A DNA stretch of 64,000 bases from Verrucomicrobiota bacterium (GTDB lineage: Bacteria > Verrucomicrobiota > Verrucomicrobiia > Chthoniobacterales > UBA10450), in the NCBI GenBank assembly GCA_003218375.1, contig QHNH01000016.1, positions 21,979-85,978 of the forward strand, written 5' to 3'. The position numbers and the translations under genes are program-made. This document shows positions 7,352 through 36,291 of the stretch, one piece after another (the first letter of the stretch is position 1; each line of letters begins with the position of its first letter). Below the pieces are notes generated by a model. It saw only the letters and a list, made by a program, of their open reading frames with translations. It was not told where the DNA came from and made no database searches.

Positions 7352-8365
7352 ATGGCTGAGAATCGAAAGCTGGGGCTCGGGTGTCTCACCATCTTTCTCG
7401 CGGTGGCGCTTTGCGCCAGCGTGTTCATCAATCTCGTCCTGGCCGCAACCGCATTTCGCCGCTTCGGTGGAGGCCCGCAGTTCGAAGAGCCGACGCCGTC
7501 GTTTCGGGAAGTCATTGTGCAACGCGGCGCGCGCGGGAGCGGCGACAAGATCGCGGTGATCACAATGCGCGGCCTGATCAGCTCGTCCCTGCCGGGCAAC
7601 GTGGGGGACACGATGGTGGAAGACATGCGACTCGCGCTCCAGCAGGCGCGCGATGACGACCACGTCCGGGCGATCGTGCTGGAAATCGATTCGCCCGGCG
7701 GAGAAGTAACCGCGTCGGATGTTATCTACAACTGGGTGGTCAAGACGCGCGCGAAAAAGCCGGTGATTATCTACATGGATTCGCTCGCGGCTTCGGGCGG
7801 ATATTACGTCGCCTGCGGCGGGAAATACTTGATGGCGAACGAGACGACGATTACTGGCAGCATCGGCGTTATCATCCAAACGCTGAACTACGAACAGCTT
7901 TTCAACAAGGTCGGCCTCGCCTCGGTGGTCTTCAAAAGCGGGAAGTTCAAGGACATGCTGAGCGGGACGCGTCCGGTCACTCCAGAAGAACGCGAATACA
8001 TTCAGAACTTTGTGATGAAAACCTATGACAAATTTCTTGGGATCGTCGCGCGCGAACGGAATCTGCCCGCGGACGGGCTCCGTAATTCCGTGGCCGACGG
8101 CCGCATCCTCTCCGGGAAAGACGCGCTCGATAACAAGTTGATCGACGCGGTGGGCCAGATCGAAGACGCGTTCGTGAAGGCGAAGGAACTCGGTCACGCG
8201 CCTGGGGCGACGATCGTGAAATACGGGCCGCCGTTTAGCTTCGGTCGTTTATTGCGGGCCTTCGGCAGCACGGACAACAAGATCGAGCTGACGCTGCCGA
8301 AGCAGTTGATGCCGCAGCTGGAAACGGGGCGCGCTTACTTTTTGCCGAGCTTCTACGCTCCGTAG
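7352..8365 (+). CDS. sppA: Signal peptide peptidase SppA (S49 serine protease)
   Basis: A 337-residue protein with one N-terminal membrane helix (about residues 9-32) and a single S49 domain. The catalytic Ser is in MDSLAASGGYYVAC (Ser148) and the likely general-base Lys is in FKSGKFKDM (about Lys200), the spacing of the short Bacillus-type SppA. It cleaves remnant signal peptides and other membrane-held peptides, with the active site outside the cytoplasm. It opens the + strand operon that runs to 13737; the CPBP protease gene starts 15 bp later. Confidence 0.93.
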   Translation: MAENRKLGLGCLTIFLAVALCASVFINLVLAATAFRRFGGGPQFEEPTPSFREVIVQRGARGSGDKIAVITMRGLISSSLPGNVGDTMVEDMRLALQQARDDDHVRAIVLEIDSPGGEVTASDVIYNWVVKTRAKKPVIIYMDSLAASGGYYVACGGKYLMANETTITGSIGVIIQTLNYEQLFNKVGLASVVFKSGKFKDMLSGTRPVTPEEREYIQNFVMKTYDKFLGIVARERNLPADGLRNSVADGRILSGKDALDNKLIDAVGQIEDAFVKAKELGHAPGATIVKYGPPFSFGRLLRAFGSTDNKIELTLPKQLMPQLETGRAYFLPSFYAP

Positions 8366-19472: not shown

Positions 19473-20594
19473 CTACGACCTTGGCTCGCGGATCCGGCGC
19501 GATGGGACCCACTCGTCCCATTTCGATTCGTAGTCGGTGTAATGAATCAGGTGCACGCCATCCTTAGCCTGCAAGACGGTCGCGGCGTACCAGTGCTTCT
19601 TCCAAAGCACTTCCACTTTCGTGCCTTTCGCGTAACGGACCGCCTTGATCGCCTGGAGATCTTCCGGCGCGACCCAGAGGTCTTCATCGTCTTCGTAGCC
19701 GATGAAGTGAATCTTTAGCTTCTCACCGCGCGCGTCGATGACCCGGCAGGCGTACCAGTCGCCGTTGCTATCGCGTGCCTTTGCGCGTTCGCCGATTCTC
19801 GGGTTCGCCAAAGGTTTCGACTGGGCCAGGACCATTTCCGTATCGAATGTCTTGGTATGCGCAAAAGTGGAGCGCTGTTCTTCCGCCGCGTTCATGTCGG
19901 CTTCGACGTGGGCGGCGAATTCCGAGAGCGTGACCGCGCCATCGTGATTCAGATCGACGTAGGAAACGCCGCGAAGCGCGTCGAGCAGCGCCTCGGTAAA
20001 GGTCCAATGCTCGGTCGACGATTCGCTCGCGGCCGACGAGGTCACCGCGGCGTAGACGGGGCCCTTCGATTGTTTTGTGATAGCGAGCCCGGCCTGGCCG
20101 GAATAGCAGCAATCGATCAGCCAGAGAACGCGGCTGCAATTGCTTCCGTTGATTTTTCCCGGGATCGAATTGACCGACCAGCCATCGACGTCATCATCGC
20201 CGGCGTCGTAGGACGCGAGATAAACGTCGTTGCCATCATCGGATTTCGATCCGTGCCCGGCGTAGTAAACGATAAGGAAATCGTCGGCGCGCAGTTTCTT
20301 CAACTGCTCGGTGAACGCGCTGTCGATCTGCTGCTGGGTGGCTTGCTTGTCCTGGAGATAAACGATTTGCGATTCCGGGACGCCGCTCTGCTTGAAAAAA
20401 TCGACGAGCGCGTTGTCGCGCCGGTTCTTGACCGGGAACGAGCCGTACGTCTCCGAATGTTTCCAGCTGAGAACGCCGACGACGAAGACCCAGGTTTTCG
20501 TGGGCTGCCAGTCGGGGTCGTTGGCGGAGACAACCCTCGGAAAGAGTTGAACAAGAAAAAGAGCGAATAACAAACGCGCGATCAATGTTCTCAT
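19473..20594 (-). CDS. Secreted caspase-family (metacaspase-like) peptidase with EF-hand and two chromo-barrel/Tudor-like domains
   Basis: I use the ATG at 20594 (373 residues). Residues 1-24 are a signal peptide. Residues ~33-210 are a C14-type peptidase with catalytic His114 in YYAGHGSK and Cys163 in LIDCCYSG. Residues 214-226 (DLNHDGAVTLSEF) form a canonical EF-hand loop, suggesting Ca2+ control as in metacaspases. Residues ~266-313 and ~323-368 are two related modules (IHFIGYEDDEDLWV and IHYTDYESKWDEWV) that look like Tudor-knot/chromo-barrel folds. The protein should act in the periplasm or outside. Substrate unknown. It is monocistronic and divergent from a rhodanese gene. Confidence 0.85.
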   Translation of the reverse strand: MRTLIARLLFALFLVQLFPRVVSANDPDWQPTKTWVFVVGVLSWKHSETYGSFPVKNRRDNALVDFFKQSGVPESQIVYLQDKQATQQQIDSAFTEQLKKLRADDFLIVYYAGHGSKSDDGNDVYLASYDAGDDDVDGWSVNSIPGKINGSNCSRVLWLIDCCYSGQAGLAITKQSKGPVYAAVTSSAASESSTEHWTFTEALLDALRGVSYVDLNHDGAVTLSEFAAHVEADMNAAEEQRSTFAHTKTFDTEMVLAQSKPLANPRIGERAKARDSNGDWYACRVIDARGEKLKIHFIGYEDDEDLWVAPEDLQAIKAVRYAKGTKVEVLWKKHWYAATVLQAKDGVHLIHYTDYESKWDEWVPSRRIREPRS

Positions 20595-20618
20595 TTGCGG
20601 CGGCAATGTATTGCATGG

Positions 20619-27240: not shown

Positions 27241-27367
27241 CGCCCATGGTTCGCCGGATCGGGGCGAACTTCAAACGGGCGTCGAATAATCCTAATCAAA
27301 GAACGCAACAAAACGTCCCGATCACCGCCGCGTGCCCTTGCCGCCGCTTCGCGTCCGGCATGTCGCG

Positions 27368-27955
27368 TTAAGGCGTCCCACGCTTGATAAAGCCTTCGAT
27401 GTCGATGCTGTCCTTCTCGTCGCGGGCTGTTTGCATGAAAAAGCTCGATTCTCGCAATACAGTTTCGTTCTCCTTCGCAATATTAGAATTTTGACTGCTT
27501 AAATCCGCCGCTGCCCGATTGGTATTCCATTGCTTCAGTTTCCCGTCAACAAAATAGTACCTGTCTTCAAGACTGTTTGCTATTTTGCGAGGATCAAGCT
27601 CGTGCGCATCCTTGTCCCAAAGGAAGAAAGACTGCTTGGACGCAACAAAGATTAACTGGCCATTTTCATAGTAGTAGTTCTCCTCGATCCACCGGTTGGA
27701 CATACCAATGGTAACCTTCACATGGCGGATTTGGCCCTCGTGCCAAAACGCGGATAGCGTGCCACCTCTATCTGTACCCGTCAGTAAGGATTTTTTGACT
27801 TCGCGAGTTGGAAGTCGATCAATCTGCGTCGTCTTTTTGTCCATCGTCGCAACGTAATCTGCCAAATCTGAGCCATGCGAATGCGAAAGACCGAAAAGTA
27901 CGAGCGGCGAGATCCAGACCGCAAGCCTGAATTGTGTCCGCAAGTTTGTTTTCAT
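27368..27955 (-). CDS. Exported hypothetical protein, candidate immunity to the M15 RHS tip
   Basis: A 195-residue protein with a signal peptide (LAVWISPLVLFGLSHSHGS) and no family I recognise. The mature part is rich in aromatic and charged residues (RWIEENYYYENGQLIFVASKQSFFLWDK, LEDRYYFVDGKLKQWNTN), suggesting an antiparallel beta sheet of the MORN-like 'YYENGQL' type. It starts 6 nt after the RHS/M15 gene on the same strand. Location in the cell envelope and gene order fit an immunity protein against a peptidoglycan-cutting tip, but that is inference from context only. Confidence 0.65.
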   Translation of the reverse strand: MKTNLRTQFRLAVWISPLVLFGLSHSHGSDLADYVATMDKKTTQIDRLPTREVKKSLLTGTDRGGTLSAFWHEGQIRHVKVTIGMSNRWIEENYYYENGQLIFVASKQSFFLWDKDAHELDPRKIANSLEDRYYFVDGKLKQWNTNRAAADLSSQNSNIAKENETVLRESSFFMQTARDEKDSIDIEGFIKRGTP

Positions 27956-27961
27956 CTTTTT

Positions 27962-29083
27962 TTATTGACCGCCGGGATATTGAAAATGCGGACGATCAAC
28001 ACGTCTGATAAAGTTGCCGCCCCATTCGAGACCGACCTCAACACCGATTCGACCGGCGACATCATATTCAGGTCCTTCCCATATGGGGGTTGGCCCGTTA
28101 AAGAATGTGACGTCATAGGCGGTGCCGAAATTGTGATTACTCTCGCCTCCATGTGCGTTCGTTACTATGGGGCCGGGTCTCCCTCCCGGTCGGCCCTGTG
28201 CGAATAAGTCTTCTTGCTGCGCGAAGGTGCGCGATCCATCGGTGATTCGCATATCCAGACCTAATTGTCGCACCCGATATACATGTTCGCGAGCTAGATG
28301 CTGAACGTGAGGTAAAAGCGTTGCAATGTTGCCCTCGGTTCTCGGATCGAAAATCGGAATAAATAGTCTCTTTAGAGGTGGCAGATCTTGGCTTGGAAGC
28401 ATTGGAAGCGCTGACCCCATCGAGCCGGGATCGTCCAACCTAGCGGGCTTATCATCGAGAAGCGAAATGTTGTTGAAGTAGTCGAACAAGGGAGGCGTAT
28501 CGGTCGTATCGGTCCAAAGTACTTGCCGTTCATCGGCAAAGGGATTGGGAGTATCTTCAATTGCAGTGGTGTCGACAATGACGCGTCCATCATAGTCGAC
28601 GATTTGTTCCCCGAGCCCAAAAGGATCGCTCCCATTAATGGGGTCGCCTCCACAGTAGCGAAAGAGGTTAGCATCGCCGGCATCGAAGCCCGTTGGATCG
28701 CTCTGGAGAAAGCGGCCGAGGGCTGGATAATAGAACCGGTTTCGGAACTCGTAGAGGCCTAGCTCGGGGAAGTATTCTCTTCCGGTAAACATGAAGCGAT
28801 TGCCATAGGCGCTCCAGGTGCGCGGGTTGTCGCCATTCCAGTCGGTTACCGTTGGATGGCCAAAGGCGTCGTAGGTATATCTCTCGATTACGTCGCCATC
28901 CGAATCGAGGAGGAAAGCGACATTGCCCATCCGATCCAGGTGATAGCGCAGATCGCCGCGCGCTGCATCGTGACGGTAGAGGATTTCGTCCGGACCATCG
29001 CCATAGACGTTCCACGCTTTCAGGTTATTCCATTCATCCCATTCCACGATCGGCTGCCAGCCGTCGTAGGACGCCGGTTGCAT
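27962..29083 (-). CDS. Orphan RHS module with C-terminal M15 peptidase tip
   Basis: A 373-residue protein. Residues ~1-157 are the last YD repeats and the RHS-associated core (LYEFRNRFYYPALGRFLQSD, then GDPINGSDPFGL, the border after which tips vary). Residues ~250-373 form an M15 peptidase: DGSRTFAQQEDLFAQGR, His317 and Asp324 in SNHNFGTAYDV, and WGG...DRPHFQ with His366, giving the zinc ligands of VanY/L-Ala-D-Glu endopeptidases. It has no signal peptide and no shell, so it is a spare tip and not a stand-alone RHS. It starts directly after the stop codon of the Sel1-like gene. Confidence 0.85.
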   Translation of the reverse strand: MQPASYDGWQPIVEWDEWNNLKAWNVYGDGPDEILYRHDAARGDLRYHLDRMGNVAFLLDSDGDVIERYTYDAFGHPTVTDWNGDNPRTWSAYGNRFMFTGREYFPELGLYEFRNRFYYPALGRFLQSDPTGFDAGDANLFRYCGGDPINGSDPFGLGEQIVDYDGRVIVDTTAIEDTPNPFADERQVLWTDTTDTPPLFDYFNNISLLDDKPARLDDPGSMGSALPMLPSQDLPPLKRLFIPIFDPRTEGNIATLLPHVQHLAREHVYRVRQLGLDMRITDGSRTFAQQEDLFAQGRPGGRPGPIVTNAHGGESNHNFGTAYDVTFFNGPTPIWEGPEYDVAGRIGVEVGLEWGGNFIRRVDRPHFQYPGGQ

Positions 29084-29617
29084 TCACTGGATTCCAAAAG
29101 TTTCGTTCAACTCCTGGCGCGCTTTTTCCGAACCGTGTTTGGCTGCGTATTTAAGAAAAAACAGGCCGCGATCTTTGTCGCCCAAATGGTTGAGATATAA
29201 ATCGTAGCCCCATTCGCCGTCTGAATCGATCGCAATATTTTTTCTGCGAGCCAAGTCCTTCAAACGTTGCCGCCACAAAAGCGCCTTACGAAAATCGAAT
29301 AGCTCCGAATCATTGCCGTAGATGGTAATTAAATTCCTAACTGCAACATCCGAGTCATTCCTTGCCGCCAGCTTCAGATAGTACAGCTCCGTCTTCTTTT
29401 CACTCAGGTAGACGCCGTAATACGTGGCTAGCTTGAGCGCCGCTTCACCATCGCCCCGTTTTGCTTTTTTCTTAAGGACAGGCAGTTCATTAGCCGAGAT
29501 TCGCAATCCGTCGTTCATGCTAACGATCTGCAACTTTTCCTCCGCCCTACTGCTCACCGAAAGAGCGGCAGTCACAACAACGACGATGACTCCGATGACA
29601 AAAAACCGTCTCATCAT
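29084..29617 (-). CDS. Exported Sel1-like repeat protein, candidate immunity to the first RHS tip
   Basis: A 177-residue protein with an N-terminal signal peptide (FFVIGVIVVVVTAALSVSSRA). The mature part has Sel1/TPR-type helical repeats (GDGEAALKLATYYGVYLSEKK, GLFFLKYAAKHGSEKARQEL). Its ATG overlaps the stop codon of the large RHS gene by 4 nt and the orphan RHS/M15 gene follows its stop with no gap. Sel1-like proteins serve as immunity proteins in several effector systems, so gene order suggests it neutralises the caspase-like RHS tip. That pairing is inferred. Confidence 0.75.
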   Translation of the reverse strand: MMRRFFVIGVIVVVVTAALSVSSRAEEKLQIVSMNDGLRISANELPVLKKKAKRGDGEAALKLATYYGVYLSEKKTELYYLKLAARNDSDVAVRNLITIYGNDSELFDFRKALLWRQRLKDLARRKNIAIDSDGEWGYDLYLNHLGDKDRGLFFLKYAAKHGSEKARQELNETFGIQ

Positions 29618-32600
29618 TCGTTCTTCTTAAGTTTTTTCTCTGGCGGCGTTCCAGTAAATGTCTTCAATTCCCCTGCCTTACCCGTTTTTTCGTTGTTTTG
29701 CACAGTGGGTTCGGCTCCCTTGGCACTGCCGCTTCCGATCTTGGTCGTTGGAGCTTGGACCTTCGCTTCTTTACCGGTGAGCTTAGCGAGCGAATTCGCT
29801 AACTTGCTGGCGAAAGACCCTTCGCCTTTGCCCGTTTCACAAGCGACAAGCAACGCTGGTTTGTCAGGCGTGTAACCTTTCGCGATCATGTCCTTGGCTA
29901 CCTGCATTGGCGTCAACTTGTTGCCGTTTTGATCAGCTATAAATTGTGAGTTGGCGTGTCCGGCAACCGTGAATCGGTCGCTCGGATTAAAACTGTTCTC
30001 CCAAACGTGCGCCGTATCGCTCGAAGGCGTATAACTGAGATCGACTAAACCATCGGGATCAGTCTTGTTAACTGGATCATTGTGGCAATAGCGGTAGAGA
30101 TTGTAGTCGCCGGCCGCGAAGTGCTTCGGGTCGGGCTGGAGGAAACGGCCTAATTCAGGCTGGTACATCCGAGCGCGAAAATCGAACAATCGTAGGTCAC
30201 TCAGCCATTCCCGTCCAGTGAAAAGAAAGCGGTTGCCGTGGGCCGAGTAACCAAGCCAATTCCCTGACCCGTCGTAGAAGTACGGATAGCCAAAGGCATC
30301 GTAGTAGTATTGCTCGAGGATGGTGCCATTCCAGTGGGTCAGGAGCGTGCAGTGCCCCGAGGCGTCGTAGTAATGATAGGCCTTCACGTCGGTCGCCGCG
30401 TTCCAACTCGCCACGACTTCGTCCACCCGCGCCCCGTGGATGTAGAGTCGGCTCGTCGAAGCAGCGCCGGGCCCTTCCTGCACCAGGTTCCAGCCGTCGT
30501 AGTAGAAATAAATCGCCGGATTCGTGGCCGGATCGCTGGCCCCGCCGTTCCATCGTTTTACACAACGCCCCAGCGGGTCATACCCGAGCGACACAAATCC
30601 TCCGGCCACGTTGCCACTCCAGAACCACCTCGGCTGGTTCAAGGCGTTGTAGTCCGCGCTGAAGGAACCTTCTTGCATCATCACGCCATTTCCAGCCGTC
30701 CCGGTCATGTCATCGTCATAGTTGATAATCGATGGGCTCCAGCTGCGGTATTCATTTAGGCCATTGTTCTTGCGGGTGAAGGTTATCCACCCCTTGGTCG
30801 CCACCAGGTTGTCCACGCCAGTGGATGGGTTGCGTTGTCGATTGCCCAGCTCATCGTATTCGAAATGTTCCTGGCGGGCTTGCCCATGCGGGTTGTTCAC
30901 CGGATCGAGCGCGCCGTAGTAGGCATCGGTCAGCTGGCCTTCGGCGTCGTACCAGTAATGATCGCCCCGGCCGTCCTCCATCGGGTTCACGGAAGGATTG
31001 TTGCCCTTCTGGAACGAGGTAATTCGGTCGCGCTCGTCGCGAGTGTAGGTGCGCTTCGCCAACTCCTGTCCGGCGCGGGTGTGGGTGATAGAACTGATAA
31101 AGCCCCGCCCATCATAGCTCCAAGCGGTGTGAATGCCGGGCCACGAATCCTGGTAATCCACCTTGCCATCCAGGCGATAGCTGTAGCTCACCGCCACCTT
31201 CCAATAACCGCCCGTGTTATCGTAAACCGTCTGGAGCTGCCCGCGCGCCGTGTAGTCGTGCCGAACCCAGGCGCCACCTGGGTAACCCACGTGGGCCATC
31301 GCGCCATCCGGGTAACGGTAATAGGTTAATTGGGCCGTCCCGTTTGCTCCGTTGATAGTATCTCGTTCGGTCCGGACCTGCGCCGCGTCGTCATAGGTGT
31401 AACCGATCGTCGAGACTGAATTCGCAATGCGGCTCAGCCGGCTGGCAGCGTCCCATACCCGGTCAATCCGCGGCGCCGCTTCAGCATCCCAGGTGTGGTA
31501 ATCTTCCCGGCCGCGGGCATCGTAATGCAGTCGCTTGATCTGGCCTTTGCGGGTCTTCCAAGTCTTGAGCTGTCCGAACTCATAGGTGCCTTCTTCGGTA
31601 CTGGCATCGGGGAAAAGCACCTGTCTTGGCCGGCCTATCCCATCATAGTAAAAAACTGTTTGCTGGTCCTCCGTGCCCCCGTCATCGCGGTGGCGGTGCG
31701 TCACGACATCTGCCAGCTTCTTCATCGGACCCCAGGGCCAATAATCCATGTTCGTCGTGTTGCCGCGCTCGTCAATGAAGCGCCCGGGCTGCCCGAAGGC
31801 ATCGTAATCAAGCCACTGTTGAAAGCGCTGGCCGGCAGCTTCGACGGGAAAGTTTACCCGGGTTTTGTTCCCGGCAAAATCGTAGAGCGTTTCTGTCGTG
31901 CGCGGAATGGTGTTGACCGTCTCGTTCGTTTTCCAGAGGCGATTCCGCAAGTCGTAGTCGTAGGTCGTGAGCCGGCTTAGCGGATCGGTGTAACTGCTCT
32001 TCTGGCCATTCTCGTTGTAGCTGAAGTAATGCGTTTCAGTATCCGGACCTGAATACCAGTTTCCGATTGGGAGATTGCCGGCCTGAATATATCCGGTCGC
32101 CTCAAGGACAATGCGGTTATTAACGTCGTGCCATCGGGCTGTCATTCGCCTCTCTCCCGCGCTGTTGAAAGCAGGCTCGATCTGGATATGCCATTCGTTG
32201 GAGGTGTGCGCGGACGCATCTCGCGGCCCAACACCCTGAATGTAGCGGTCGTAGAGCCAATCCCAGCGGCGCGAGGCGACGTTCGGGCCGCCGTTCCAAT
32301 CCGGAGCGTTCAGTGGTTCAATGTACGACGTGCAGCGACGGTAGGAATCGTAAGTGTAGGCGCTGGGGTGGCCCAACTCGTCGGTGATGGAAATGCAATT
32401 GCCGTAAGGATCGTAACCGTAGTGCCCGATCGGGTTATCAGGCGCGTTATTCATCCCTGCATATTCCACCGTAAGAATCTGATGACGCCCGTTATAGGTC
32501 ATTCGAGTGCTAAAATCCTTGCCCGCACTGCGGGAGCGGCCATCGGAAACTGTCTTGACCAAGTCTGGTGTGCCCCCTGGCTCGCCGGGAAGATAATAGG

Positions 32601-34476
32601 TGTATTCTTTTCGGGCCCCGTAATCATCGATCGAGTTGTATTCGCTTAGAAGCAGGCCGCGGCTGTCATACGTCCGGATGATGATCGCGCCGCTAGGAAG
32701 GCGATGGCTTGTCACTTGGTTAAAGCCGTCGTGCGCACCGTTATCATAACCAAAAGTTTCGTAGCTGCCATCGGGGTAATCGATCCGCTTTACTCGCCTG
32801 CGATAATCACGCGTAAAGGTCGTTGTTTGGTTTCGCTCATCCGTCTGGCTAAAGAGCCAGTGATTATAATCATTATGCATTCGCGTAGCGTCGAGCGGCT
32901 CCGAGGCGCCAGGGTTGACGCGGTCATAATAATGCACGCTTCCATCGACGTGATGGACTTCCGCCGGCTCGCCGCTGTCATCCTGGCCGTTAGCGATCGC
33001 TTCGGTCATGATGCCGCGCCCATCCCAGATATGGCGTGGGTCGCCAAAGCTGAAATTCTGCTTTTCACTCGGTAGATTTGCCGGCAACCCGCCTTCCCGG
33101 GTGAAATCAGTCAGCTTGCCGAGTTGATAGCCGCGGCAACCGAAAGAAAAGGTGGTTCCGGATTCGGTGGTTTCAGCGGACCTGCCGAAATAGAACATTC
33201 GCCAGCCGCCCAGGCCATCGTCTTCCCGGCGCAGACCGCCATAGCAGTTGAGCTGGAAGGTTGAGACCGCGATGCCGGTGTCGCTCTTCTCCGCGAGGAT
33301 GGCGTAGGGCTGGCCCTGAACGTATTCAGGACTACGCTCAGGGTAAATGAGCGGGGGGTCACAGCCGATGCCTCTGTAGAGGTAGCGGATGGTTGTCATC
33401 GCGCCGGCATAGTGCGGATCGTCCGCCCGTTTCAGCAAAGGGTCTGGGGCGGCGTTACTGCCACTGCATGGCTCCTGGTTGTCGCCCCAACAATTCCCGT
33501 AGGTGTAGCCGGCAGTGACCTTTTGACCGGGCGCGCCACCGGGCAGCGCCTCATTTTCGTAGATCACTTGTTGCAGCGCAAAGGAGCCCGGCCCGGGCAC
33601 CTGCGAGTAGTAATAGCTCACGGTCTGGTTCACGCCGGCCCCGCTTTGGCCGGTGCCGCTTTGGACTCGCGTGATCATGTAACCAGCTCCGGGAAAATTT
33701 TCCCAGGTAATATTGAGATAACGCCCTCCCTCCTGCTCGACGTGTGTCAGAAAACCAATCGTATAGCTGAGATCCGTTCTGAATCCGTGCGGATCGTAGA
33801 CTTCCCGCGCCAGGAAGCCATAAGTCGAGTCCCAGACAAAATGAACGGAGCCTCCATCCGCCCGGCAAAGCCAGAATTCCGAGCCGTCCGCCGCCATATT
33901 GCACAGATGATCGTGGACGCCCATGCCGCCGTAGGAAAACACCTCCATCTCAGACTGCGTGAACGGCGGACCAAACTGGGGGTAGCTCGCCGGGACCATC
34001 CACTGCCCATGACCAAGGCGGACGATCTTGTATTGGGTGGTGTGGCCATCGGGAAAAGTGATATTAATGGCGGTGGTATATTTGTTGGTGTCGAAATCGG
34101 AGCTAGGAATCTCGTCCGGATACTTGAACTCATAAGAGGCGGCCCAATGCCATGAGTGTGACCAGCCCGATCTGCCGAAGTCGGCGGGCCATTCCATTTC
34201 CGAATCTTCATAATCGTTGTGGGTCGAGTTCCAGTAGCGCGTGAACTCGAGTCCATAAGCACCTAGCGCCCCCGGAACATGCAAATCGTTCACGATCCGG
34301 GTGCCGTTGCCGCTGTGCGCATCGTAACTGCCACCCGTCTGGATTTGCGGTTTCAGCGCGCCGGCATTCCCGGTGGGATTGGTGATGTCCGGGGTGGAAC
34401 CCGGCGATTGCGCTGCGAGGTTGGTCAGCCCAGCCGCGAGCGCGAAAAAGAGGACGAAGAGCTGTCGGCTTCTCAT
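29614..34476 (-). CDS. Sec-exported RHS/YD-repeat protein with a caspase-like C-terminal tip
   Basis: I start at the ATG at 34476 (1620 residues), because MRSRQLFVLFFALAAGLTNLAAQ is a clear signal peptide; the frame upstream overlaps the preceding gene. Residues ~100-1440 are YD repeats forming the RHS shell. The core ends at LGRFLQPDPKHF ... NDPVNKTDPDGL (about 1477). The 143-residue tip has His1507 in FTVAGHANSQF and Cys1546 in LLVACETGKGEGSFASKLAN, then VQAPT, the spacing and context of caspase-like/C80-type cysteine proteases. No T6SS parts (VgrG, PAAR) are present, so export is by Sec. It overlaps genes on both sides by 4 nt. Confidence 0.88.
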   Translation of the reverse strand: MRSRQLFVLFFALAAGLTNLAAQSPGSTPDITNPTGNAGALKPQIQTGGSYDAHSGNGTRIVNDLHVPGALGAYGLEFTRYWNSTHNDYEDSEMEWPADFGRSGWSHSWHWAASYEFKYPDEIPSSDFDTNKYTTAINITFPDGHTTQYKIVRLGHGQWMVPASYPQFGPPFTQSEMEVFSYGGMGVHDHLCNMAADGSEFWLCRADGGSVHFVWDSTYGFLAREVYDPHGFRTDLSYTIGFLTHVEQEGGRYLNITWENFPGAGYMITRVQSGTGQSGAGVNQTVSYYYSQVPGPGSFALQQVIYENEALPGGAPGQKVTAGYTYGNCWGDNQEPCSGSNAAPDPLLKRADDPHYAGAMTTIRYLYRGIGCDPPLIYPERSPEYVQGQPYAILAEKSDTGIAVSTFQLNCYGGLRREDDGLGGWRMFYFGRSAETTESGTTFSFGCRGYQLGKLTDFTREGGLPANLPSEKQNFSFGDPRHIWDGRGIMTEAIANGQDDSGEPAEVHHVDGSVHYYDRVNPGASEPLDATRMHNDYNHWLFSQTDERNQTTTFTRDYRRRVKRIDYPDGSYETFGYDNGAHDGFNQVTSHRLPSGAIIIRTYDSRGLLLSEYNSIDDYGARKEYTYYLPGEPGGTPDLVKTVSDGRSRSAGKDFSTRMTYNGRHQILTVEYAGMNNAPDNPIGHYGYDPYGNCISITDELGHPSAYTYDSYRRCTSYIEPLNAPDWNGGPNVASRRWDWLYDRYIQGVGPRDASAHTSNEWHIQIEPAFNSAGERRMTARWHDVNNRIVLEATGYIQAGNLPIGNWYSGPDTETHYFSYNENGQKSSYTDPLSRLTTYDYDLRNRLWKTNETVNTIPRTTETLYDFAGNKTRVNFPVEAAGQRFQQWLDYDAFGQPGRFIDERGNTTNMDYWPWGPMKKLADVVTHRHRDDGGTEDQQTVFYYDGIGRPRQVLFPDASTEEGTYEFGQLKTWKTRKGQIKRLHYDARGREDYHTWDAEAAPRIDRVWDAASRLSRIANSVSTIGYTYDDAAQVRTERDTINGANGTAQLTYYRYPDGAMAHVGYPGGAWVRHDYTARGQLQTVYDNTGGYWKVAVSYSYRLDGKVDYQDSWPGIHTAWSYDGRGFISSITHTRAGQELAKRTYTRDERDRITSFQKGNNPSVNPMEDGRGDHYWYDAEGQLTDAYYGALDPVNNPHGQARQEHFEYDELGNRQRNPSTGVDNLVATKGWITFTRKNNGLNEYRSWSPSIINYDDDMTGTAGNGVMMQEGSFSADYNALNQPRWFWSGNVAGGFVSLGYDPLGRCVKRWNGGASDPATNPAIYFYYDGWNLVQEGPGAASTSRLYIHGARVDEVVASWNAATDVKAYHYYDASGHCTLLTHWNGTILEQYYYDAFGYPYFYDGSGNWLGYSAHGNRFLFTGREWLSDLRLFDFRARMYQPELGRFLQPDPKHFAAGDYNLYRYCHNDPVNKTDPDGLVDLSYTPSSDTAHVWENSFNPSDRFTVAGHANSQFIADQNGNKLTPMQVAKDMIAKGYTPDKPALLVACETGKGEGSFASKLANSLAKLTGKEAKVQAPTTKIGSGSAKGAEPTVQNNEKTGKAGELKTFTGTPPEKKLKKNE

Positions 34477-35135
34477 GGCCGGCCTCCGGTTCGCGCTTCT
34501 TCCGCCTGAACCGTCGCGAGCGACGCGCGCGTCAGCGGCACCACGGTCCTGAGCATTTTGCAGTAAACAAGCAAATGGCCCCGCGGCGCGCCATCGGCCA
34601 GCTGCGCCGAGACGGTGCATTCGCCGCGTGAGGAAACGGTGAGCACCTGTTCTGGCGGGTTGAGCGAAATTCCGCGCGCGCCGATAACCGTGACGCGCTC
34701 CCCGGCGACGCGTGGATCAAACTTCAATCGCACCGTCACAGGCTCCGCACCCGTGACGAAGATATGATCCATTGTTTCCCGATGACGCGCTGGAACCTGG
34801 GGCAGCTGAGCGCCTGGGCGCCAGACTTCCACGCGAGGAGTGAGCTGTTGGATTTCAGCAACATCGCGCCGGGCCAGAGGTCGAACGATGGTTTGGGCGG
34901 GAGGTGGCGGCAGCGCCGGCGCAGGGATCGGCGGCGGCGGCACGGGAACTGGAGCACTCGCACTGGATGGCGGAGTGCCGGAAGCATACGGGACCAGGGA
35001 GGCCGGCAACGGTGGCGGAACCGGCGCTACTGAGGGAGATGGCAAAGACGATGGCGCTTCTGCGATGACAAGCCGCGTTTGAAGAAGCACAAGGCTGATC
35101 GCCAGGATCAGCGCCCTGGGGAGGGGGGATTTCAC
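34473..35135 (-). CDS. Exported proline-rich protein upstream of the RHS gene
   Basis: A 220-residue protein with a signal peptide (ALILAISLVLLQTRLVIA) followed by a Pro/Ser/Ala-rich spacer (about 27-82) and a beta-rich C-terminal domain (FVTGAEPVTVRLKFDPRVAGERVTVIGARG, ECTVSAQLADGAPRGHLLVYCKML). Its stop codon overlaps the RHS start (ATGA at 34473-34476), so both are translated together. An adaptor or surface-anchoring role for the RHS protein is plausible but I recognise no family. The promoter of the RHS operon should lie upstream of 35135. Confidence 0.75.
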   Translation of the reverse strand: MKSPLPRALILAISLVLLQTRLVIAEAPSSLPSPSVAPVPPPLPASLVPYASGTPPSSASAPVPVPPPPIPAPALPPPPAQTIVRPLARRDVAEIQQLTPRVEVWRPGAQLPQVPARHRETMDHIFVTGAEPVTVRLKFDPRVAGERVTVIGARGISLNPPEQVLTVSSRGECTVSAQLADGAPRGHLLVYCKMLRTVVPLTRASLATVQAEEARTGGRP

Positions 35136-35339
35136 GGTCTGAATTAAAATGAAATGTGGGCTTTATTGGCAAGAACTTTTTCACCAACCGAGAATGTGGT
35201 GACAAAGGACGCGTTGCGTGCGTTGTCCGTGGGAGGAATCATCGCGCGCTCCTTTTCTCAGGCACGGAAGTCCGGCGCAAGCCTATTCGGTCCCGAAGAT
35301 TATGAGCAGCGATCATGATCATGAGCAGGAAAGAGAGAA

Positions 35340-36291
35340 TTACATCCTGCGGCCGACTGCTTCGGCGACGGCGCGAAGGCGCGGAACGAGATCGGCGAAA
35401 ACTTCGGGCACGATGGCTTGTTCGCCATCGCTCTTGGCGAACTGCGGAGAATCGTGGACTTCGATCATGACGGCATCGGCGCCGGCTGCGACGGCGGCGA
35501 GGGCCATTTGCGGAACGAAATCGCGCAGGCCGATTCCATGAGTCGGATCGACCACGACGGGGAGGTGCGTCTTCGATTTCAACAGCGGGACGGCGTTGAG
35601 ATCGAGGGTGTAACGGGTGGCGTTTTCGAAGGTGCGGATGCCGCGCTCGCACAGGAGCACGTTCATGTTGCCCTCGCTCAAAATGTATTCCGCGCTCATG
35701 ATCAAATCGCTGATCCGGGCGCTGTAGCCGCGTTTGAGCAAAACAGGAAGATGACTGCGGCCAACTTCTTTCAGCAGGGAAAAGTTTTGCATGTTGCGGG
35801 TGCCGATCTGGAGGCAATCGGCGTATTTTTCGACTAGGGCGAGGTCGCGCGCGTCCATGATCTCGGTGATAACCGGCAAACCGGTCTGGCGCCGGGCTTC
35901 GCGCGCCGCCGCGAAGAATATCCGCGCCCAGTTCTTTCACAATGCCGGCAATCGAAGAGATCTGCTCCTGGCTTTCCACGGCGCAGGGGCCACAGATCAA
36001 CGCGACATTTTCGTCGCCGCCAATCTTAACTCCGCCGATGGAAACGGGAGAGGCGGTGCCGCGAAACTCAAAGGAGGCGAGTTTGTACGGTTTCTCGACC
36101 GGCACGATCGCTTCGACCCCCGGCATCGCCGCGAGCGGTTTCTCGCGAATCCGATCTTCCGCGCCGATTACACCGATGATCACGCGGGAAGCGCCCCGGC
36201 TGATTTGGGCGTCGAGCCCGAATTCCCGGACGCGGGCGACCACGCGCTCGATCTGGTCTTCGGTCGCGTTGGGTTGAGTGATGATAAGCAT
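35340..36291 (-). pseudogene. aroF: DAHP synthase (AroF/AroG, ACT-domain type), internally deleted and frameshifted
   Basis: The N-terminal part (36291 to about 35902) is a ferredoxin-like/ACT regulatory domain (MLIITQPNATEDQIERVVAR) plus the start of the barrel (VALICGPCAVES ... [10 protein letters not shown]). The rest ([22 protein letters not shown] ... VDPTHGIG ... [13 protein letters not shown]) resumes in another frame from about 35906 to 35340. The conserved block that should lie between, with the substrate-binding KPRTSPYSFQG, is missing, about 60-65 nt. As written the gene cannot make active enzyme for the first step of the shikimate pathway. A real deletion or a consensus error are both possible. 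Confidence 0.85.

What the first reader, a model, noticed from the sequence alone, without database searches (positions are those of the whole stretch)
27368..34476. Two stacked RHS tip/immunity cassettes in a Sec-exported RHS locus
A full RHS gene is followed by an overlapping exported Sel1-like gene, then by a shell-less RHS fragment with a different tip, then by another exported gene. Spare tip plus immunity modules downstream of an rhs gene are known from enterobacterial Rhs loci, where recombination swaps tips. Here the main protein has a Sec signal and both presumed immunity proteins are exported, implying envelope-directed competition without a T6SS.
Basis: partly seen in the sequence, partly recalled or inferred. 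Interest (0 to 1): 0.7.

Follow-up and report, generated by a model that had tools for sequence, protein, structure and literature searches.

The report
Stacked exported-toxin cassettes behind an Rhs gene
A bacterium of the phylum Verrucomicrobiota carries a secreted, interchangeable-tip toxin gene with its likely antidote, followed by a second, cut-off toxin tip that looks like a cell-wall-cutting phage enzyme with its own exported partner; it is a real example of a known kind of bacterial weapon system, with a few unusual twists.

Summary
The anatomy is real. On the minus strand lie an exported Pro-rich gene (34473-35135), a Sec-signal RHS gene (29614-34476), an overlapping exported Sel1-like gene, a 373-aa RHS fragment, and an exported 195-aa gene. 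The block (about 27278-35339) is absent from all seven congeners, where aroF abuts mfd. Tip 1 has a conserved His/Cys pair and a weak clan-CD (caspase-like) fold match. RHS proteins with this tip are followed by an exported Sel1-like gene in four genomes, so this is a credible toxin/immunity pair; in a congener the same pair sits in the orphan slot. Tip 2 is a phage-endolysin-like M15 L-Ala-D-Glu peptidase with intact motifs; its 195-aa partner is a weaker immunity candidate. No T6SS was detected (TssC and PAAR absent), though an eCIS is present. Similar arrays occur across the bacterial family. Tip exchange with this main gene is not supported: the fragment's shell belongs to another RHS clade (44% aa; longest DNA match 65 nt at 71%), unlike enterobacterial dissociated tips. 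Displaced tips and signal-bearing Rhs proteins are already described, so this is a new member of a known kind. Toxicity, neutralisation and outer-membrane passage are untested.

The parts
34473..35135 (-). 220-aa Pro-rich exported protein, upstream partner of this RHS clade; overlaps the RHS1 start by 4 nt
   Evidence: homologues directly upstream of the same RHS clade in own L020/L021 and in L085, L095, L105, L113
29614..34476 (-). RHS1, 1620 aa, Sec signal, YD/RHS repeats, Rhs core
34411..34476 (-). Sec-type signal sequence of RHS1 (MRSRQLFVLFFALAAGLTNLAA)
   Evidence: direct reading; crude signal heuristic
30046..30267 (-). Rhs-associated core of RHS1 ending in DPDGL
   Evidence: TIGR03696 70.1 bits
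29617..30045 (-). tip 1, 143 aa, clan CD (caspase/C80)-like domain with conserved His (GHANS) and Cys (LLVACETG)
   Evidence: alignment A2; AlphaFold model pLDDT 65; structural neighbours mostly clan CD, best Z 7.1
29084..29617 (-). 177-aa exported Sel1-like protein, probable immunity partner of tip 1
   Evidence: same pairing in L095, L049, L080
27962..29083 (-). RHS fragment, 373 aa, no signal peptide; last YD repeat and core of a different RHS clade plus tip 2
28613..28873 (-). Rhs-associated core of the fragment ending in DPFGL
   Evidence: TIGR03696 68.4 bits
27965..28612 (-). tip 2, 216 aa; its C-terminal part (about 27965-28351) is an M15 L-Ala-D-Glu peptidase domain with SNHNFGTAYD and DRPHF motifs
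   Evidence: PF13539 2.6e-9; LysB4 9.7e-17 and 2vo9 L-alanyl-D-glutamate peptidase 1.4e-15
27368..27955 (-). 195-aa exported protein, candidate immunity partner of tip 2
27278..35339 (.). lineage-specific island between aroF and mfd; absent from 7 of 7 congeners

Best explanation
This is a Sec-dependent Rhs polymorphic-toxin island with one deliverable and one silent cassette. The upstream exported protein and RHS1 form the delivery unit; RHS1 enters the envelope by Sec and carries tip 1, a clan-CD-like cysteine-peptidase toxin. The exported Sel1-like protein protects the producer from tip 1 in its own envelope. The downstream fragment is the displaced 3' end of a different RHS gene: it carries an endolysin-derived M15 peptidoglycan endopeptidase tip and the exported 195-aa protein that probably protects against it, but it has no signal, so it cannot be delivered unless it becomes fused to an RHS shell again. 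Shown here: anatomy, export signals by sequence, tip-2 enzyme family with intact motifs, conserved tip-1/Sel1-like pairing, island gain, no T6SS markers. Inferred: toxicity, neutralisation, the target of tip 1, the immunity role of the 195-aa protein, and how RHS1 crosses the outer membrane and reaches a competitor.
For: RHS cores above cut-off. Tips are polymorphic behind a conserved border: RHS1 is 80% identical to own paralogue L021 over the last 150 shell residues, with no convincing tip similarity. The tip-1 family is followed by an exported Sel1-like gene in four RHS loci: window, G026:C17, G298, G065:C13. In G026:C17 the pair sits on the second, shell-poor fragment behind a main RHS that carries a GIY-YIG tip, so the pair moves as a unit. 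Across 70 cassettes, related tips have related next genes in 4 of 8 pairs against 0.06 expected, 0 of 20000 shuffles. The Sel1-like relatives in 83 family genomes occur only behind RHS genes, one of them fused inside a 524-aa exported protein that also holds another partner-gene domain. Tip 2 matches phage L-Ala-D-Glu peptidases. Other tips in the family include Tlde1, YkuD and M91 domains. Empty sites in 7 of 7 congeners. Tip and partner genes have lower GC (0.48-0.52) than shells (0.57-0.58) and flanks (0.61). No TssC or PAAR.
Against: No toxicity or neutralisation data exist. The tip-1 fold match is moderate (Z 7.1, model pLDDT 65, Foldseek E above 0.02) and no PDB sequence match was found. 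A tip-1-like domain outside RHS (G268, L142) is followed by a different, apparently cytosolic protein, so the pairing is not universal. Relatives of the 195-aa protein stand alone, and no second RHS-M15 case was found. Some family tips (for example GIY-YIG) are not envelope-directed. The signal-peptide heuristic is crude (26 of 85 background ORFs score positive).
Confidence: 0.68

Rival explanations
1. The fragment plus 195-aa gene is a dead remnant: the 3' end of an older RHS gene overwritten by the incoming RHS1 unit, with no present function, and the 195-aa protein is an ordinary exported protein carried along.
For: No signal on the fragment, abrupt start inside the shell, shell of a different clade; relatives of the 195-aa protein stand alone.
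Against: Both ORFs are fully open, the M15 motifs are intact, the two genes are 6 nt apart, and intact cassettes of this form recur in the family.
Confidence: 0.25
2. Tip 1 is not a toxin but an autoprocessing caspase-like domain, and the Sel1-like protein is a processing or assembly factor.
For: Most caspase-like domains in polymorphic toxins are releasing peptidases (PMC3482391).
Against: It is the C-terminal-most domain with nothing to release; the same paper lists C-terminal versions as likely toxins; it occupies the slot that other tips occupy in paralogues.
Confidence: 0.12
3. Enterobacterial-type silent cassette: tip 2 is exchanged onto RHS1 by homologous recombination through the shared core.
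For: Other family arrays have 89-99% identical parent and fragment shells (G027, G026, G019); the process is described for enterobacteria (PMC2935791).
Against: Here the two shells share only a 65-nt stretch at 71% and one of 34 nt at 79%, and 44% aa.
Confidence: 0.07
4. The fragment is made and exported by readthrough of the Sel1-like stop codon (TGA-ATG, same frame), giving a signal-Sel1-RHS core-M15 fusion.
For: Same frame and zero gap.
Against: A one-in-three coincidence of frame; no readthrough signal was looked for or is known here; nothing similar was noted in the other arrays.
Confidence: 0.03

Closest known systems
Rhs dissociated tips by C-terminal displacement (Enterobacteriaceae; Jackson 2009, PMC2935791)
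   Same: Full rhs gene followed by core fragments with other tips; conserved border, variable tip
   Different: There the dissociated tips always carry a core of the same clade; here the fragment's core is of another clade and no recombination-grade identity exists
Signal-peptide Rhs proteins delivered without a T6SS (Myxococcus xanthus Rhs4/Rhs5, Bacillus WapA; PMC10433427)
   Same: Large Rhs protein with a signal peptide; no T6SS markers in this genome
   Different: Different phylum; a conserved exported upstream partner gene; exported neighbours; delivery not tested
Salmonella Typhimurium main/orphan rhs locus (PMC7043789)
   Same: One delivery gene plus an adjacent orphan toxin with its immunity gene
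   Different: That locus is T6SS-linked and carries no export signals on its immunity genes as far as described; here there are export signals and a peptidoglycan peptidase tip
Tox-Caspase C-terminal toxins of polymorphic toxin systems (PMC3482391)
   Same: C-terminal caspase-like His/Cys domain in a polymorphic toxin, Sec/T2SS route
   Different: Partner listed there for Tox-Caspase is Imm57; here an exported Sel1-like protein
M15 endopeptidases: phage endolysins LysB4/Ply500; M15 phage-endolysin domain in polymorphic T6SS toxin loci of Neisseria (PMC10210955)
   Same: Same peptidase family and metal-ligand motifs; used as a toxin domain
   Different: Fused to an RHS core fragment in a genome without detected T6SS

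Membership tests
Rhs polymorphic toxin | Rhs-associated core domain | tested here: met
   TIGR03696 63.8 and 65.1 bits against a cut-off of 32.5
Rhs polymorphic toxin | Conserved shell with non-homologous tips after DPxGL | tested here: met
   80%, 63% and 70% shell identity to L021, L020 and G022:C6 with no convincing tip match
Rhs polymorphic toxin | Cognate immunity gene directly downstream, inherited with the tip (tip 1 / Sel1-like gene) | tested here: met
   four RHS loci and shuffle test
Rhs polymorphic toxin | Cognate immunity gene directly downstream, inherited with the tip (tip 2 / 195-aa gene) | tested here: inconclusive
   no second RHS-M15 locus found; relatives of the 195-aa protein stand alone
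Rhs polymorphic toxin | Toxic tip neutralised by the partner | not testable with these tools
   needs expression assays
T6SS-delivered Rhs effector | T6SS sheath and PAAR genes in the genome | tested here: not met
   no VipB/TssC, no PAAR; controls rang in E. coli
Enterobacterial-type dissociated tip | Fragment core of the same clade and near-identical to the main core | tested here: not met
   44% aa over the last 150 residues; longest DNA match 65 nt at 71%
Clan CD (caspase/C80-like) peptidase, tip 1 | Ordered catalytic His then Cys after successive strands | tested here: met
   His kept in all four homologues that cover it, Cys invariant in five; placed after strands 26-29 and 65-68
Clan CD (caspase/C80-like) peptidase, tip 1 | Fold | tested here: inconclusive
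   top VIA-align rows mostly clan CD but Z at most 7.1; Foldseek E above 0.02
M15 L-Ala-D-Glu peptidase, tip 2 | Family profile and metal-ligand motifs | tested here: met
   PF13539 above cut-off; SNHNFGTAYD and DRPHF aligned with LysB4 and 2vo9
M15 L-Ala-D-Glu peptidase, tip 2 | Peptidoglycan cleavage | not testable with these tools
   needs enzyme assay
Sel1-repeat protein | Pfam Sel1 (PF08238) match | tested here: inconclusive
   none for the window protein; below cut-off in relative L049

The most novel reading that the evidence does not exclude
A T6SS-independent, Sec-exported Rhs system of Verrucomicrobiota in which both toxins and immunity proteins work in the cell envelope, and in which displaced cassettes can be stacked across RHS clades by a process other than homologous core recombination.
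Probability: 0.22. Interest if true: 0.65.

Novelty: new member of a known kind. Interest (0 to 1): 0.46.

Why it matters
It gives a compact, testable pair of exported toxin/immunity candidates in a little-studied phylum without T6SS markers, including a recurrent clan-CD-like tip paired with an exported Sel1-like partner, and an endolysin-type enzyme reused as an Rhs tip. It also shows a dissociated tip that breaks the same-clade rule reported for enterobacteria, and poses the open question of how signal-bearing Rhs proteins cross a Gram-negative outer membrane.

Tried and rejected
Homologous tip swap between RHS1 and the fragment: rejected on DNA identity. Conservation of the downstream genes independent of RHS: not seen for the Sel1-like gene; the 195-aa family does stand alone elsewhere. 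A second RHS-M15 locus to test the 195-aa pairing: none found. Fold of the 195-aa protein (helix plus beta-meander): no convincing PDB match. Close relatives of tip 1 in GTDB contigs by peptide patterns: none. PDB sequence match for tip 1: none. Rfam: no match at gathering score in the island. Promoter-like sites at chance level and terminator-like sites below chance level.

Full report
What is there. All genes lie on the minus strand and are read from high to low coordinates. An exported Pro-rich 220-aa gene (35135-34473) overlaps the start of RHS1 (34476-29614, 1620 aa) by 4 nt. RHS1 begins with a clear Sec-type signal, has RHS repeats (PF05593) and an Rhs core (TIGR03696), and ends in a 143-aa tip after DPDGL. 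Its stop overlaps the start of a 177-aa exported Sel1-like gene (ATGA). The next codon after that gene's stop starts a 373-aa RHS fragment in the same frame; it keeps about 157 residues of shell, then a 216-aa tip. A 195-aa exported gene follows after 6 nt. The phylum is taken to be Verrucomicrobiota because G315, drawn from the same phylum and class, matches contig JAEUHM010000054.1 (same length, 368021) named Verrucomicrobiaceae.

An island. I located mfd in all eight genomes of the genus and took the DNA upstream. In all seven congeners aroF and mfd are neighbours with only a short spacer and no RHS genes. Homology stops at the aroF stop (35340) and resumes at about 27277, so about 8 kb are specific to this lineage. 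Tip and partner genes have GC 0.48-0.52 against 0.57-0.58 for the shells and 0.61 for the flanking genes.

Tip 1 and the Sel1-like gene. Tip 1 has relatives with a conserved His and an invariant Cys. An AlphaFold model (mean pLDDT 65, core about 75-90) has clan CD proteins as most of its top structural neighbours (RTX and clostridial cysteine protease domains, CHAT, gingipain, legumain), best Z 7.1. This is suggestive, not proof; Foldseek E-values were above 0.02 and there is no PDB sequence match. Four RHS loci with this tip are each followed by an exported Sel1-like gene: the window, G026:C17 (tip 50% and partner 40% identical), G298 (L049) and G065:C13 (L080). In G026:C17 the upstream partner and a main RHS (disrupted in that assembly) with a GIY-YIG tip and a small partner come first, and the tip-1/Sel1-like pair occupies the second, shell-poor position. 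So the same cassette is attached in one genome and displaced in another. In G022:C6 a Sel1-like domain (54% identical) is fused into a 524-aa exported protein that also holds a domain related to other partner genes, as expected of a poly-immunity protein. In 83 family genomes the Sel1-like gene is found only behind RHS genes. Outside RHS, one tip-1-like protein (G268, L142) has a different neighbour.

Tip 2 and the 195-aa gene. Tip 2 matches Peptidase_M15_4 above the Pfam cut-off and the solved enzymes LysB4 and an L-alanyl-D-glutamate peptidase (2vo9), with the metal-ligand motifs intact. Its nearest sequence relatives in the phylum are endolysin-sized genes, at least two of them beside phage terminase-like genes. 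The target would be peptidoglycan, which fits an exported partner. The 195-aa protein is a weaker case: its relatives are exported but stand alone, in Verrucomicrobiota and in two proteobacterial contigs, and I found no second RHS-M15 locus.

Family-wide picture. Twenty-five of 83 genomes in the bacterial family have Rhs cores, 79 in all, with arrays of up to five. Full-length RHS genes often carry a signal (21 of 31), downstream genes more often than background (42 of 70 against 26 of 85), and fragments almost never (2 of 29), by a crude rule. Related tips have related next genes in 4 of 8 pairs against 0.06 expected by shuffling. Tips in the family include Tlde1, YkuD and M91 domains, but also GIY-YIG, so an envelope target is common, not universal.

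How the stack arose. In enterobacteria dissociated tips always carry a core of the same clade, and displacement is thought to need near-identical cores (PMC2935791). Many arrays in this family fit: parent and fragment shells are 99% identical in G027, 94% and 92% in G026, 89% in G019. The window does not: the two shells are 44% identical in protein over the last 150 residues and share only a 65-nt stretch at 71% and a 34-nt stretch at 79%. The fragment's shell is closest to G021:C4 (78% over 433 nt). I infer that an RHS1 unit landed on, or replaced the 5' part of, another RHS gene. Exchange of tip 2 onto RHS1 by homologous recombination is unlikely.

Secretion. VipB/TssC and PAAR are not detected in this 97.8%-complete genome. 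There is an eCIS locus with sheath, tube, AAA ATPase, baseplate and an eCIS_core cargo, but a Sec signal on RHS1 argues against it as cargo. Signal-bearing Rhs proteins that work without T6SS are described in Myxococcus (PMC10433427). How RHS1 crosses the outer membrane is unknown.

Verdict. A genuine Rhs polymorphic-toxin island with a strong first toxin/immunity pair, a probably silent second cassette with a weaker pair, and an unusual cross-clade junction. Systems of this sort are known (PMC3482391, PMC2935791, PMC7043789).

Noticed in passing
L134/L135 (own genome C27, about 154-182 kb): An extracellular contractile injection system locus: sheath, gp19 tube, AAA ATPase, baseplate J, Phage_base_V and an eCIS_core protein; that last protein also has a sub-threshold match to a lethal-factor-type domain.
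   Followed up: partly
window 35239-36291: aroF (DAHP synthase) appears split by a frameshift here, whereas several congeners have one intact 338-aa frame; mutation or assembly error.
   Followed up: no
L020:10025-10382, L021:6005-6358, L025:8362-8683: A near-identical (97-98%) element of about 350 nt lies next to RHS fragments at three own RHS loci and in no other fetched sequence; not in the window. Genome-wide count not checked.
   Followed up: partly
L113 (G022:C6), next gene after the RHS stop: A 524-aa exported protein that seems to fuse several partner-gene domains, the last Sel1-like.
   Followed up: partly
L123 (G007:C44), cores at contig positions 8246 and 10266: Two short RHS fragments (225 and 236 aa) that carry their own signal peptides, unlike other fragments.
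   Followed up: no
window 19473-20606, minus strand: Exported caspase-family-like ORF with GHGS and DCCYSG motifs, unrelated to the island.
   Followed up: no
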